Shown here in pieces: positions 57,220 to 63,047 of a stretch of 64,000 bases of DNA; within the stretch, counting starts at the first letter, position 1; every line of letters starts with the position of its first letter. The translations under genes and the position numbers were made by a program. Source of the stretch: Iodobacter fluviatilis (GTDB lineage: Bacteria; Pseudomonadota; Gammaproteobacteria; Burkholderiales; Chitinibacteraceae); NCBI RefSeq assembly GCF_004194535.1, contig NZ_CP025783.1, positions 1 through 64,000 of the forward strand, read 5' to 3'. Under the pieces are notes generated by a model that did not search any database, had not been told where the DNA came from, and was given only the letters and a program-made list of their open reading frames with translations.

Positions 57220-60141
57220 ATGCCCCAAGCTAAAAATCAAGCGAAAGCACCCGTCATCATGCAAACCCGGAATGAACTTAAAACCCTGTTTGCCGATAAT
57301 CGAACCCCCAGCGGGAATGATTTCGATACCTTTATCCAGTCGGCCATTATTCAAAAAGACGACGGCTTTAGCATCAGCCCCACCAATGTGCTGCTGGATC
57401 GAGATATCACGCTCAATAAAGACATCAGCATTACCGGCCTAAGTACACTCAATGGCGGGCTTTCCCTGCCTAATCAGTTTGTGGTGGATGCAGACAGCAT
57501 CGACGCCCATTTGCCTCTTACAGCCAAAGAAGCGGTCAGCCTAGGGAAATCCCTTGAGGTTGGCGGGCTGGCTACACTCAAAGGCGGCTTAAATCTACCC
57601 GGCCAGTTTGAAGCCAGCGCCAGCGCAATTCTGGCTCAGCAACCATTCACGGCGAAAGGAAATATCAGCGCAGAAAAAAATCTGGATGTTGTAGGGGCCA
57701 CCACACTGAGCGGCGGATTAAACCTGCCTGGGCAATTTAAAGTAGATGCCAGCCAGATTTCAGCGCTGCAACCATTTGCAGCCCAAGAGCACCTCAGCGC
57801 AGAAAAAAGCCTGAATGTTGCTGGCCTTACCACCCTGCAGGGCGGCTTAGATCTGCCGGAGCAATTTTCAGCAAGCATCGCAGGGATTGTGGCCCACCAG
57901 CCCACAACCCATAAAGAGCATGTGACGCTGGATAAAACGCTGACGGTCGCAAAAGAAAGTACCTTTGCCGGAGGCTTGACCATTCCCGGCCAGCTGAAAG
58001 CCGACAACACCGGCGTCAGCAGCATTGGCCACTTCACCGCACAAGCCAATGCCTTATTTGAAAAAGACCTTAATATCCAGGGCCTGTTACACAGCGATAC
58101 GATCACCACCCAAACTGCTGACGCTTCACTCAGGGTACAAGCGCCTCTGACTGTTGCAGGCAAAACCGTTTTAAACAACGGCCTGGCCATGCCAGGCGTA
58201 ATGAGCGCCAGCGAAGAAGGCATCGCCTTCAATAAAATGCTCACCCTCAATGCGCCAGCCATTTTCAATCAAGAGTTACAGGCAAACAGCCAGCTCACCT
58301 TAATGAGCGGGCTGAATATGCCTGGCGAATTTGAAGTCAGCCCTGCAGAAATCACCACCCATCAGCCACTCAAAGCTCGGCACAATATCCATGCAGAGCA
58401 AGATTTAACGGTTGAAGGTAAAGCCACCCTCAGGGGCGGCGTATGGAGCGATCAGCTCAGCACGGCTACACCCGGCGCGGCGCTTAATGTAAACGCGCCC
58501 CTTTTAGTGAATGGCCTGGCCAAGCTTAATCAGGGGCTGCTTGTACCGGGGCAATTAAGCGCAGATAGCACAGGCGTTACAGCACACGCCAAGCTCTTCG
58601 CCAAAGATAATCTGGATGCGGAAAAAGCGCTGAATGTATTCGGCCAGACCACGCTGACTGGCGGCCTGAGCATGCCTGGGCAATTTAGCGCGGATAACAC
58701 AGGAGTCTCAGCGCACGCCAAGCTCTTTGCCAAAGATAATCTGGATGCGGAAAAAGCGCTGAATGTATTCGGCCAAACCACGCTGACTGGCGGCCTGAGC
58801 ATGCCTGGGCAATTAAGCGCAGATAGCGCAGGGGTCACAGCGCACGCCCAGCTCTTTGCCAAAGACAATCTAATGGCAGAAAAGGCACTGAATGTATCCG
58901 GCCTAGCCACACTGACTGGCGGCCTAAGCATGCCGGGCCAATTTAGTGCCAATGCCGGTGGAGTTGTATCTATCCAGCCTTTTAGCGCCAGCAACAGCTT
59001 TGATGCGGCGGGGCTAGCCACCCTGCACGGTGGCTTAAAACTGCCTGAGCAATTTGAAGTTCAAAGCGACGCCATCAACACCTATCTGCCGCTGAATGCC
59101 AAAAACGATTTTAATCTTGAAAAAAATCTACAGGTGGTCGGCCACACCACACTGGCTGGCGGCCTGATGTTACCCGATGCCTTCAATATTGACGCGGCGG
59201 GCATCACCACCATCAAGCCGCTTACCGCCCAAAGCCAAGTCACGTTTGAAAATACTTTAGTCGTTAAAAACGCGGCCACGCTGGAAGGCGGCCTCACCCT
59301 GCCAGAGCAATTCACAGCAGACAGCACCGGCATTACCGCTTACCAGCCCTTTACCGCCAAAGACACCGTCAAGATTGATAAAACGCTAACGGTAAGCGAG
59401 AGCGCCATGCTCAATGGCGGCTTTAGCGTCCCCGATGTTCTGACTGCAGACAAAGAACGCGTCAACGTGAATAAGCCGCTGCATATCACCCAGGATAAGG
59501 AGCAAGCACCGTTGAAAATCCATGATCCCCTGCGCAACTGCACCCCCTTACTGCTCACCGCAGCGGGTAAAGTGGGCATCAATACCGACACCCCCAATGC
59601 ACAGCTGCACGTCGTCGCCCCAAGCGGCCACGATGCGCTGCGCCTCGAACATCGCGCCGCCGATGGCAGCTTAAGCCCCGCGCTACTGATTACCCCGCAA
59701 GGCCAGCTTGCCCTTGGCAGAAGCACCGCTGAATTCAAGCTGGATATCGCAGGCAATGCACGTATCAGCCAAGAGCTGCAGCTAGACGGCCCACTGAACA
59801 TCAGCGGCATGGCCACCCTAAAAGGCGGGCTGACTTTACCCGGCCAGTTAGAAGCCAACGCCAGCGGCGTGCTGATCCATAAGCCGCTTGAAATTAAAGA
59901 TAATCTGCTTGTCAGCGGCAGCGCCCGTTTCGACAACGGGCTGACTCTGCCCGGCCAGTTTGAAGCCAGCGCAGCAGGCGTCAGCGCCAATAAACTGCTC
60001 AGCGCAAAAAATGGCTTAATTGTAGAAGGCAATACCACCCTAAGCGGCGAGCTAACCCTACCCGGCCAGCTTGAAGCCAAGGCCAGCGGGCTGACTCTCT
60101 ACAAACCGCTACTGGTCAAAGAAAGTGTTCACGCCGATTGA
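57220..60141 (+). CDS. eCIS long fibre (Pvc13-like position), 3' end cut by IS21
   Basis: A 973-residue frame. Residues about 8-45 (MQTRNELKTLFADNRTPSGN) carry the shared adaptor motif. The rest is some twenty repeats of about 40 residues built on GGL-LPGQF-A-----LTAK--L--EK-L-V-G--TL, several nearly identical (58555-58930). They probably form a trimeric beta-rich fibre. A short stretch near residues 760-850 (LKIHDPLRNCTPLLLTAAGK, then GKVGINTDTPNAQLHVV) resembles fibre segments that precede chaperone or tip domains. The native sequence ends around 60125, where IS21 begins, and the last few residues come from the IS. The receptor-binding tip is therefore probably missing. Confidence 0.8.
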   Translation: MPQAKNQAKAPVIMQTRNELKTLFADNRTPSGNDFDTFIQSAIIQKDDGFSISPTNVLLDRDITLNKDISITGLSTLNGGLSLPNQFVVDADSIDAHLPLTAKEAVSLGKSLEVGGLATLKGGLNLPGQFEASASAILAQQPFTAKGNISAEKNLDVVGATTLSGGLNLPGQFKVDASQISALQPFAAQEHLSAEKSLNVAGLTTLQGGLDLPEQFSASIAGIVAHQPTTHKEHVTLDKTLTVAKESTFAGGLTIPGQLKADNTGVSSIGHFTAQANALFEKDLNIQGLLHSDTITTQTADASLRVQAPLTVAGKTVLNNGLAMPGVMSASEEGIAFNKMLTLNAPAIFNQELQANSQLTLMSGLNMPGEFEVSPAEITTHQPLKARHNIHAEQDLTVEGKATLRGGVWSDQLSTATPGAALNVNAPLLVNGLAKLNQGLLVPGQLSADSTGVTAHAKLFAKDNLDAEKALNVFGQTTLTGGLSMPGQFSADNTGVSAHAKLFAKDNLDAEKALNVFGQTTLTGGLSMPGQLSADSAGVTAHAQLFAKDNLMAEKALNVSGLATLTGGLSMPGQFSANAGGVVSIQPFSASNSFDAAGLATLHGGLKLPEQFEVQSDAINTYLPLNAKNDFNLEKNLQVVGHTTLAGGLMLPDAFNIDAAGITTIKPLTAQSQVTFENTLVVKNAATLEGGLTLPEQFTADSTGITAYQPFTAKDTVKIDKTLTVSESAMLNGGFSVPDVLTADKERVNVNKPLHITQDKEQAPLKIHDPLRNCTPLLLTAAGKVGINTDTPNAQLHVVAPSGHDALRLEHRAADGSLSPALLITPQGQLALGRSTAEFKLDIAGNARISQELQLDGPLNISGMATLKGGLTLPGQLEANASGVLIHKPLEIKDNLLVSGSARFDNGLTLPGQFEASAAGVSANKLLSAKNGLIVEGNTTLSGELTLPGQLEAKASGLTLYKPLLVKESVHAD

Positions 60142-60268
60142 AATTTGACCCACCCTGCCGATCGAATTTTGACCCAGGGCCGAGCGTTGCTTTTTATCGG
60201 AGCAACTGTGCATAAGTCTAGCAAATAGCGGGCCACTCACCCGCTATTTTTACGCCTTCAGGTTCGGC

Positions 60269-61069
60269 TTAAAACCGCTCAGCCTCGGTACGCGCTTCCT
60301 CCTTTCTGCTTTGCTCCCTTTGTTTTATCTTCGTTTTTGCTGCTAAGCTGCTGTGCTGGAAACGGTAGGAGTCATTCCCCGTTTCTACAATGTGGCAATG
60401 GTGCGTCAGCCGATCCAACAACGCCGTCGTCATCTTGGCATCGCCAAATACACTCGACCATTCCGAGAAGTTCAGATTCGTGGTGATGATGACGCTGGTG
60501 TGCTCATAGAGCTTCGACAACAAATGAAACAGCAATGCGCCTCCGGCCTGACTAAAGGGTAAGTAGCCCAGTTCATCCAAAATCACCACATCCACTCGCA
60601 TCAGCGCGAGTGCAATACGACCTGCTTTGCCTTCACGTTTTTCTTTTTCCAGTAAATTGACCAAATCCACGGTCGAATAAAAACGGCCGCGCTTGCCGTG
60701 ATGCGTGATCCCGCCGATCGCTAACGCCGTGGCCAAATGTGTTTTACCCGTGCCTGGGCCGCCAATCAGTACGGTATTTTGTGCCGTGTCGGTAAAGGCC
60801 AATGTCGCCAGTTGATTGACCAGTGCTTGATCTGCCTTGCTCGCGCTAAAGTCAAATCCCGCTAAATCACGATGCACGGGAAACTTCGCTGCGCTCATTT
60901 GATGCTGAATCGAGCGCACCTTACGATCGCTGTGTTCTGCTTGCAATAAATGCTCAATCAGCCAGCCACACGTTTCCATACTCTGGCCGCCCTGGCTCTT
61001 CAGATCCAGCCAAGCGGCCGCCATCCCATGCAAGCGCAAGGCTTTGAGTTCAACACTCATCTCATGCAT
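60269..61069 (-). CDS. istB: IS21 helper ATPase IstB
   Basis: A 266-residue AAA+ ATPase that assists IstA in target selection and transposition. Walker A is GGPGTGKTHLATAL, Walker B VVILDELGYLPF, and sensor VIITTNLNFSEW. It starts at the ATG at 61069 (MHEMSVELKALRLHGMAA), overlapping the istA stop by 8 bp; the open frame extends to 61111 but the shorter start is the family one. Intact. Confidence 0.95.
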   Translation of the reverse strand: MHEMSVELKALRLHGMAAAWLDLKSQGGQSMETCGWLIEHLLQAEHSDRKVRSIQHQMSAAKFPVHRDLAGFDFSASKADQALVNQLATLAFTDTAQNTVLIGGPGTGKTHLATALAIGGITHHGKRGRFYSTVDLVNLLEKEKREGKAGRIALALMRVDVVILDELGYLPFSQAGGALLFHLLSKLYEHTSVIITTNLNFSEWSSVFGDAKMTTALLDRLTHHCHIVETGNDSYRFQHSSLAAKTKIKQREQSRKEEARTEAERF

Positions 61070-62591: not shown

Positions 62592-62696
62592 CTTTTATCC
62601 TCTGCTCAAGAGTTAAGCAGAATAAGTAAAGCACCTGGGTCAATTTTGGATCGGCAGAACTAGCTGTGGTGGGTCAGTTTTCGGTCGGCGTCAACA

Positions 62697-63047
62697 AAAT
62701 CCCCTTGAAACACGCCGGAGCGAGGAACAAGCGGGGCGGGGTTTCGGCCAGGGAGCGAGGCAGCGAGCCAATCCCGCCTGCCGCCGACTCGATTGTCCGC
62801 AGCGCAGGGGCCTTCGTGTTTCGTGGGGTCGCCTTCTTTGGCTTCGTTTCTTGGCGAAGCAAGAAAGGAAGGCCCCCGCGGTGGCCAACCGCTCCAAGAC
62901 CCCCGTGCCAAAGGCACAAAAAAGATCTTTTTGACCTGGGTTAGCCCACGCGGGGAATCCCGCACCAAAACCACCGTGCCGAAGGCACTAAAAAGATCAG
63001 ACACAACGCTATCAACCGCCTCCCACGTAATGAAAAAGGCCTCCCTT
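62697..63047. other. Leader of Pvc16-like gene, mostly dispersed repeat
   Basis: About 350 bp between the IS21 end and the Pvc16-like start. Most of it (to about 63004) is the dispersed repeat described at 1909-2215. An open frame begins upstream at 62793 and runs into the gene, but the repeat part is not conserved protein. The Shine-Dalgarno AAAGG at 63035-63039 supports the ATG at 63048. Confidence 0.6.

What the first reader, a model, noticed from the sequence alone, without database searches (positions are those of the whole stretch)
60126..63047. IS21 sits exactly where the eCIS tape-measure and AAA+ ATPase genes should be
The gene order follows the Pvc/Afp plan (tube and sheath, Pvc5, 6, 7, 8, 9, 10, 11, 12, fibre) up to the fibre at 60125. 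It resumes with the Pvc16-like cap at 63048. No tape-measure (Pvc14) or AAA+ ATPase (Pvc15) gene occurs anywhere in the window. The IS21 between them lacks a target duplication, and the fibre ends abruptly at its edge. The simplest inference is an IS-mediated deletion of the fibre tip, Pvc14 and Pvc15, leaving an incomplete particle. The alternative is a system that works without them or takes them from the chromosome.
Basis: partly seen in the sequence, partly recalled or inferred. Interest (0 to 1): 0.8.

Follow-up and report, generated by a model that had tools for sequence, protein, structure and literature searches.

The report
Plasmid injection system gutted by IS21
A bacterial plasmid carries a phage-tail-like protein injector that lacks the tip of its fibre and three neighbouring genes, among them the length ruler and the loading motor, at a spot now filled by a jumping gene, so it is most likely a recently broken machine rather than a new kind.

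Summary
The IS21 is 60126-62696; the next 351 bp, up to the cap gene, are a copy of a chromosomal repeat, apparently cut by the IS, plus non-coding DNA. The plasmid does have AAA+ genes (MoxR-like, IstB), but no Pvc15.

The deletion reading is supported. The window lacks roughly the last 340-380 fibre codons, the small gene, the tape measure and the ATPase: about 6 kb replaced by 2.9 kb. The whole assembly gives no tape-measure match, and its best ATPase match is FtsH.

This IS copy has no target duplication; 5 of 7 chromosomal copies do. Six of the seven are identical to it and one differs by a single gap, which suggests a recent event. Adjacent deletion and recombination between two IS copies cannot be told apart, and the repeat before Pvc16 suggests more than one event.

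Best reading: a recently inactivated eCIS plasmid of the pChV1 type. A working system without these genes, or an assembly collapse, is unlikely but not excluded.

The parts
57220..60125 (+). eCIS tail-fibre gene (Pvc13 position), truncated; its frame runs 16 bases into the IS to a stop ending at 60141
   Evidence: aligns to residues 7-872 of the 1255-aa pChV1 fibre and 6-918 of the 1274-aa Xenophilus fibre, at about 26% identity; last residues are IS-encoded
60126..62696 (-). complete IS21-family element, 2571 bp, no target duplication
   Evidence: seven further full-length copies on C1, 6 of 7 identical over 2571 bp and one with a single gap; imperfect inverted terminal repeats; 5 of 7 chromosomal copies have 7-9 bp duplications
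60269..61111 (-). istB (helper ATPase)
   Evidence: PF01695 3.7e-89; NF038214 1.3e-80
61062..62591 (-). istA (transposase)
   Evidence: NF033546 IS21 transposase 1.6e-93
62697..62940 (+). copy of a chromosomal repeat, apparently cut on its left side by the IS
   Evidence: 26 C1 matches of 78-92% by my count (lower bound); 6 of 8 copies compared share sequence further upstream that is absent here, 2 do not
62941..63047 (.). short, apparently non-coding stretch with part of a second repeat tail; no ATPase C-terminus seen
   Evidence: 44-bp match to a repeat tail; three-frame translation shows no ATPase remnant by eye, and the pChV1 ATPase has no match here at E<=1
63048..63971 (+). Pvc16-like cap gene
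   Evidence: PF14065 2.7e-17; 44% to pChV1 Pvc16, aligned from its first residue
44577..46112 (+). sheath
   Evidence: PF17482, PF04984; 56% to pChV1
46126..46572 (+). tube protein (Pvc1-like)
   Evidence: PF06841 3.4e-35; 83% to pChV1
46637..47158 (+). second tube protein (Pvc5-like)
   Evidence: PF06841 3.1e-09
47155..47313 (+). Pvc6-position small protein
   Evidence: 37% to pChV1 54-aa protein, E 3e-7
47292..48077 (+). Pvc7-position CIS tube protein
   Evidence: PF19266 1e-17
48074..49678 (+). Pvc8-like spike/baseplate V
   Evidence: PF04717 5e-15
49686..50084 (+). Pvc9-like gp25
   Evidence: PF04965 5.3e-22
50081..50521 (+). Pvc10-like spike tip
   Evidence: PF19267 5.4e-21
50540..54141 (+). 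Pvc11-like baseplate J in two overlapping frames (50540-52390 and 52117-54141); real frameshift or assembly error not decided
   Evidence: the two pieces align to consecutive parts of one pChV1 protein of 1055 aa
54153..54773 (+). protein in the position of the pChV1 330-aa gene
   Evidence: 24-30% identity
54766..57207 (+). Pvc12-like baseplate protein
   Evidence: 49% to pChV1, full length
40674..42185 (+). second, shorter fibre-like gene upstream, open to its own stop
   Evidence: 34% to parts of pChV1 (6505-7104) and of the Xenophilus stretch
1..3180 (+). the same IS21 (part), repeat and Pvc16 seen again because the circular contig overlaps itself; Pvc16 frame broken here, presumably by end-of-contig errors
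   Evidence: C3 1-16009 = 60787-76766 at 99.66% with 47 gap openings; broken frames

Best explanation
This is a Pvc/Afp-type eCIS on a ~60.8 kb plasmid related to pChV1 that has lost an internal block of about 6 kb (fibre tip, small gene, tape measure, AAA+ ATPase), now replaced by one IS21 copy, a truncated genomic repeat and ~110 bp of non-coding DNA. Shown: this gene order in three related lineages, no match to tape measure or Pvc15 in the whole assembly beyond FtsH, an exact complete IS without target duplication, near-identity of the IS to its chromosomal copies. Inferred: IS21 entered the locus recently and the block was lost either by transposase-driven adjacent deletion or by recombination between two IS21 copies, after or together with an earlier change that put a genomic repeat in front of Pvc16. 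Inferred consequence: sheath, tube, baseplate and cap may still be made, but length control, cargo loading and targeting by the main fibre are lost, so the system is most likely inactive.
For: Fibre / small gene / TMP / ATPase / Pvc16 in pChV1, FDAARGOS_635 and FDAARGOS_1274 plasmids, with TMP = PF19268 and ATPase = PF00004 tested on pChV1. Same order in Xenophilus AP218F and G313, G313 with a 108-aa ORF as the small gene. Window fibre stops at the equivalent of residue 872 of 1255 (pChV1) or 918 of 1274 (Xenophilus); block expected from these points 5,925 and 6,128 bp. No TMP in own genome at E<=1; 12 of 12 chosen control records positive. ATPase matches in own genome: FtsH 2.8e-15 and two near 0.01, all on C1. 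Of 22 order genomes matching the window's Pvc12, 20 also match PF19268; the two without are this genome and G414, whose Pvc12 match is marginal, E 8e-4. IS ends exact, no duplication, 5 of 7 chromosomal copies with 7-9 bp. In E. coli evolution lines none of 14 IS movements linked to large deletions had a target duplication, all explicable as adjacent deletions (PMC11708052, passages).
Against: 2 of 7 chromosomal IS21 copies also lack duplications. The ATPase end is replaced by a repeat and non-coding DNA, not by the IS itself, so a single clean IS deletion does not explain everything. The fibre/IS junction is seen once and the contig begins inside the IS, so a collapse is not fully excluded. 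The relatives are only 38-49% identical in Pvc12, and the fibre alignments (about 26%, repetitive) make the cut point approximate. 32 of 51 order genomes with a Pvc16_N match, this one included, have no PF19268 match; I did not examine those loci. In the Pararhizobium stretch L014 the pChV1 tape measure matches, but pChV1 fibre, ATPase and Pvc16 do not at E<=1e-3; that stretch ends about 2.3 kb after the tape-measure match. The small gene was searched only in the window (best 0.003, inside a DUF4132 gene), not on the chromosome.
Confidence: 0.82

Rival explanations
1. Assembly collapse: the real plasmid has two IS21 copies flanking the tape-measure/ATPase block, and the assembler jumped from one copy to the other.
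For: The contig starts inside this IS21 and the IS is present in 8 near-identical full-length copies; contig ends are error-rich (47 gap openings in 16 kb); the fibre/IS junction is seen once.
Against: The block would have to be missing from the whole assembly, where neither TMP nor a Pvc15-like match better than FtsH is found. Seven other copies of the same 2.57 kb IS are placed in C1, 5 of them with matching duplications. The contig overlaps itself by 16 kb and shows IS/repeat/Pvc16 twice alike, though both may rest on the same reads.
Confidence: 0.07
2. The system works without these genes: an eCIS free of tape measure and dedicated ATPase, with the plasmid's MoxR-type AAA+ or a chromosomal AAA+ standing in, and the second fibre gene (40674-42185) supplying targeting.
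For: Most remaining eCIS frames are open, Pvc11 excepted. A second fibre-like gene is open. A research paper states that lineage II eCIS often lack pvc6, pvc10 and pvc14 homologues, and that PVC without pvc15 makes intact but empty particles (PMC11495950, passages). 32 of 51 Pvc16_N genomes have no PF19268 match.
Against: The three related lineages whose order I read have both genes. The IS is nearly identical to its chromosomal copies, so open frames may only mean that the loss is young. The fibre ends in IS codons. The MoxR gene lies in an oppositely oriented cluster with VWA, DUF5682 and DUF4132 genes and has no match at E<=1e-5 in the pChV1, Xenophilus, G313 and Pararhizobium stretches.
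Confidence: 0.05
3. The relatives' order was never present: in this lineage TMP and ATPase sat elsewhere or Pvc16 was a separate unit, and IS21 merely landed between fibre and Pvc16.
For: Pvc16 is preceded by repeat and non-coding DNA, unlike the overlapping ATPase/Pvc16 of pChV1 and Xenophilus.
Against: The fibre is truncated, there is no target duplication, and no TMP or Pvc15-like match better than FtsH exists in the assembly.
Confidence: 0.06

Closest known systems
pChV1 and sister plasmids of Chromobacterium violaceum (NZ_MG651603, NZ_CP050991, NZ_CP069443, NZ_CP069588)
   Same: homologous eCIS in the same order up to the fibre; 56% sheath, 83% tube, 49% Pvc12; ParA 83%, ParB 55%; shared accessory genes
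   Different: the three records that I read have full-length fibre, small gene, tape measure and ATPase, with no IS listed there (NZ_CP069588 seen only as a search hit); the pChV1 paper discusses it as possibly P1-like phage (PMC5871888, passages)
   Same: same order and homologous parts
   Different: complete by this comparison; the Xenophilus stretch shows a second, at least partial, sheath and a second tube gene upstream
PVC lacking pvc15 (laboratory mutant)
   Same: eCIS without the AAA+ ATPase
   Different: only pvc15 was removed there; intact but empty particles (PMC11495950, passages)
Afp of Serratia entomophila on pADAP
   Same: plasmid-borne eCIS with an upstream lysis cassette (review passage, PMC12961389)
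   Different: first 16 genes orthologous to PVC (same passage); Afp14 involved in length (title of a cited paper seen in PMC6450956)
IS-associated adjacent deletions in E. coli evolution lines
   Same: IS at the edge of a deletion, no target duplication
   Different: other IS families with known ancestors; here the ancestor is inferred (PMC11708052, passages)

Membership tests
eCIS (Pvc/Afp type) | sheath, two tube proteins, gp25, spike, spike tip, baseplate J, Pvc12 in the standard order | tested here: met
   Pvc11 is split into two frames
eCIS (Pvc/Afp type) | Pvc16 cap gene | tested here: met
   PF14065 2.7e-17
eCIS (Pvc/Afp type) | AAA+ ATPase Pvc15 (said to be always present, PMC4122934 passage) | tested here: not met
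   no Pvc15-like match on the plasmid, chromosomal best hit is FtsH. So this is a remnant derived from an eCIS, not a complete one
eCIS (Pvc/Afp type) | tape measure Pvc14 (PF19268) | tested here: not met
   no match in own genome at E<=1; 12 of 12 chosen control records positive. Said to be often lacking in lineage II (PMC11495950 passage)
eCIS (Pvc/Afp type) | full-length tail fibre | tested here: not met
   cut at 60125; a second shorter fibre-like gene is open
eCIS (Pvc/Afp type) | assembled contractile particles | not testable with these tools
   needs electron microscopy
IS21 family | istA and istB, terminal inverted repeats beginning TGT (recalled) | tested here: met
IS21 family | target duplication | tested here: not met
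   0 bp at this copy; 7-9 bp at 5 of 7 chromosomal copies of the same element; 5 bp for IS21 itself (PMC10122671 passage). Membership rests on the genes and on the other copies

The most novel reading that the evidence does not exclude
The remaining genes still build a minimal injector: tube, sheath, baseplate and cap without tape measure or dedicated ATPase, of variable length and without classical cargo loading, targeted by the second fibre (40674-42185) and kept because the particle itself has a use, for example as a cargo-free tailocin-like killer.
Probability: 0.05. Interest if true: 0.75.

Novelty: new member of a known kind. Interest (0 to 1): 0.3.

Why it matters
It is a natural loss of tape measure, ATPase and fibre tip together, with the cap retained, and a reminder that eCIS gene clusters counted in surveys may be inactive. 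It also points to related eCIS plasmids shared between Chromobacterium and this host's lineage; pChV1, one of them, was published as a possible P1-like phage.

Tried and rejected
Chromosomal or second-plasmid source of tape measure or ATPase: not found (best ATPase hit is FtsH). The missing small gene was searched only in the window. MoxR AAA+ of the plasmid as Pvc15: not supported; pChV1 ATPase against the window gave only hits at E>=0.49, one of them in MoxR at 0.64. IS reaching 63047: rejected. Exchange among surviving IS copies: no 8-bp flanks of the eight copies pair within 2 mismatches, direct or inverted. The repeat in the 1.5-kb flanks of the other IS copies: none in 7 of 7 at E<=1e-5. 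Rfam on the window: only two ALIL pseudoknots, so the repeat reaches no listed RNA family. Scans with the Pvc12 alignment in genome contigs and viral contigs gave 113 and 38 pattern matches but no confirmed relative; the phage collection gave no match. A sheath scan confirmed 404 relatives, of which 80 were kept; I read the gene order of one of these 80 (Xenophilus) and did not read others with similar sheath identity, such as Nostoc (52-53%). Tube search in 43 genomes of the family: 4 positive including this one, the other three at 27-30% identity; none of the 8 other same-genus genomes. In the PF19268 search at E<=1, 4 of 14 control genomes also gave matches, none over the cut-off. No structure prediction was made.

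Papers: PMC11495950, PMC5871888, PMC8213781, PMC4122934, PMC6450956, PMC11329794, PMC8894135, PMC11708052, PMC10122671 and PMC12961389 were seen as found passages only; others only in search listings (one search listed none). In the listings I recognised no title or abstract start that describes this deletion. 'Iodobacter' was my recalled guess at the host, not a result. Subscription journals are mostly not held.
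Full report
What is there. The window is bases 1-64000 of contig C3 (76,766 bp) of a 4-contig, 99.98% complete assembly. C3 1-16009 and 60787-76766 are the same sequence (99.66%, 47 gap openings), so the contig is a circle of about 60.8 kb with overlapping, error-rich ends, and the window contains the whole plasmid. The eCIS runs from the sheath at 44577 to the fibre at 57220-60125, followed by IS21 and Pvc16. A Pvc6-position protein is present at 47155-47313.

The IS. 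Eight full-length copies of one element exist in the assembly, this one and seven on C1. They define it as 2,571 bp, here 60126-62696, with imperfect inverted terminal repeats. Six of the seven chromosomal copies are identical to it and the seventh differs by one gap. Five of seven have target duplications of 7-9 bp; two of seven and the plasmid copy have none. I count 26 chromosomal matches of this type, a lower bound because only 40 of 99 first-look candidates were scored; a second plasmid copy lies at about 7944-8163. Six of the eight copies compared (seven chromosomal, one plasmid) share sequence in the 100 bp further upstream that is absent at the IS junction; two do not. So the IS, or the deletion, probably cut into the repeat.

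What is missing. pChV1 and two sister plasmids of C. violaceum carry the same system with fibre (1255 aa in pChV1), a 150-aa protein, tape measure, AAA+ ATPase and Pvc16, in that order. On pChV1 the last three match PF19268 (3.7e-42), PF00004 (1.7e-28) and PF14065 (1e-16). None of the loci whose order I read has the fibre directly followed by Pvc16. The window fibre aligns to residues 7-872 of 1255 in pChV1 and 6-918 of 1274 in Xenophilus; a second alignment reaches Xenophilus residue 930. So roughly 340-380 codons are missing; identity is only about 26% and the protein is repetitive, so this is approximate. The block expected from these points is 5,925 bp by pChV1 and 6,128 bp by Xenophilus; 2,922 bp (60126-63047) stand in its place.

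Is it elsewhere in the cell? The pChV1 tape measure and the PF19268 profile find nothing in the whole assembly at E<=1. As a positive control the same profile found 12 of 12 records, all chosen by me: four plasmids plus the genomes of 8 of the 80 loci (a match may lie anywhere in those genomes). The pChV1 ATPase finds FtsH (2.8e-15; identity) and two matches near 0.01, all on C1. The small gene was sought only in the window (best match 0.003 inside a DUF4132 gene). Across 399 genomes drawn from the order, 22 match the window's Pvc12 and 20 match PF19268; all 20 are among the 22, and the two without are this genome and G414, whose Pvc12 match is marginal (E 8e-4). Against a simple reading, Pvc16_N matches 51 of 399 (50 over the cut-off), and 32 of those 51, this genome included, have no PF19268 match; I did not examine those loci. 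In the Pararhizobium stretch L014 a tape measure is present, but the pChV1 fibre, ATPase and Pvc16 find no match there at E<=1e-3; the stretch ends about 2.3 kb after the tape-measure match, so the rest may lie beyond it.

How it arose. Missing duplications at deletion-linked IS copies are documented: none of 14 such cases in E. coli evolution lines had one, all explicable as adjacent deletions (PMC11708052, passages). Recombination between two IS21 copies would leave the same scar (inference). No surviving IS copies share flanks with it. In pChV1, its two sisters and Xenophilus the ATPase and Pvc16 frames overlap. Here Pvc16 follows ~110 bp of apparently non-coding DNA and the repeat, with no ATPase remnant seen. 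So at least one further change probably put the repeat in front of Pvc16, before or with the IS event. The near-identity of the IS copies argues for a recent event, which would also explain why most remaining frames are still open (inference).

Likely consequence. PVC particles without Pvc15 are intact but lack payload (PMC11495950, passages). Afp14 is involved in Afp length (title of a cited paper). Fibre tips normally bind the target (recalled). The expected product is therefore, at best, unloaded tubes without length control; this is inference. Pvc11 is split between two frames. Whether this is real or an assembly error cannot be told; if real it would probably also harm the baseplate.

Limits. 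The fibre/IS junction is seen once and the contig starts inside the IS, so an assembly collapse keeps a small probability. The comparison rests on relatives with 38-49% identity in Pvc12. I have no expression or particle data. The odds of the best reading were trimmed from 0.85 to 0.82 only so that they and those of the rivals sum to one.

Verdict. As a phenomenon it is ordinary (IS-associated decay of an accessory system). I saw no description of this case in the listings, most subscription journals not being held.

Noticed in passing
window 42985-44001 and 44001-44462: A protein with endolysin (7.4e-15) and holin (7.3e-5) matches, followed by a small protein whose pChV1 relative weakly matches Rz-like spanins (0.008): a probable lysis cassette, 71% and 58% identical in pChV1 and 61% and 44% in the G313 stretch. 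Among plasmids only 5 records match the first protein, 4 of them the Chromobacterium eCIS plasmids. A lysis cassette is already described for Afp (PMC12961389 passage).
   Followed up: partly
window 38683-40382: ParA is 83% and ParB 55% identical to those of pChV1, so plasmid backbone and eCIS may travel together, though ParA of 76-82% identity also occurs in other plasmids. The pChV1 paper does not use the words contractile or injection.
   Followed up: partly
L003 (contig C4, 12,328 bp): Reading frames repeat at a distance of 6,299 bp: the contig looks like a head-to-tail double copy of a ~6.3 kb plasmid.
   Followed up: no
window 22996-36286: MoxR ATPase, CoxE-type VWA, DUF5682, SWIM and DUF4132 genes in one cluster on the minus strand; the SWIM gene appears split near 24009-24060.
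   Followed up: no
window 17504-17620 and 36560-36676: Two ALIL pseudoknots in opposite orientation next to similar transposase-like ORFs (IS3 as the family is recalled).
   Followed up: no
window 37974-38459 and 42188-42608: A long tandem repeat reading YQKDIKRISKG and a long proline-threonine tract.
   Followed up: no
L011 22626-23078: The 150-aa gene between fibre and tape measure is 78% identical between pChV1 and Xenophilus but matches no Pfam family at E<=0.001 and no PHROG at E<=0.1.
   Followed up: no
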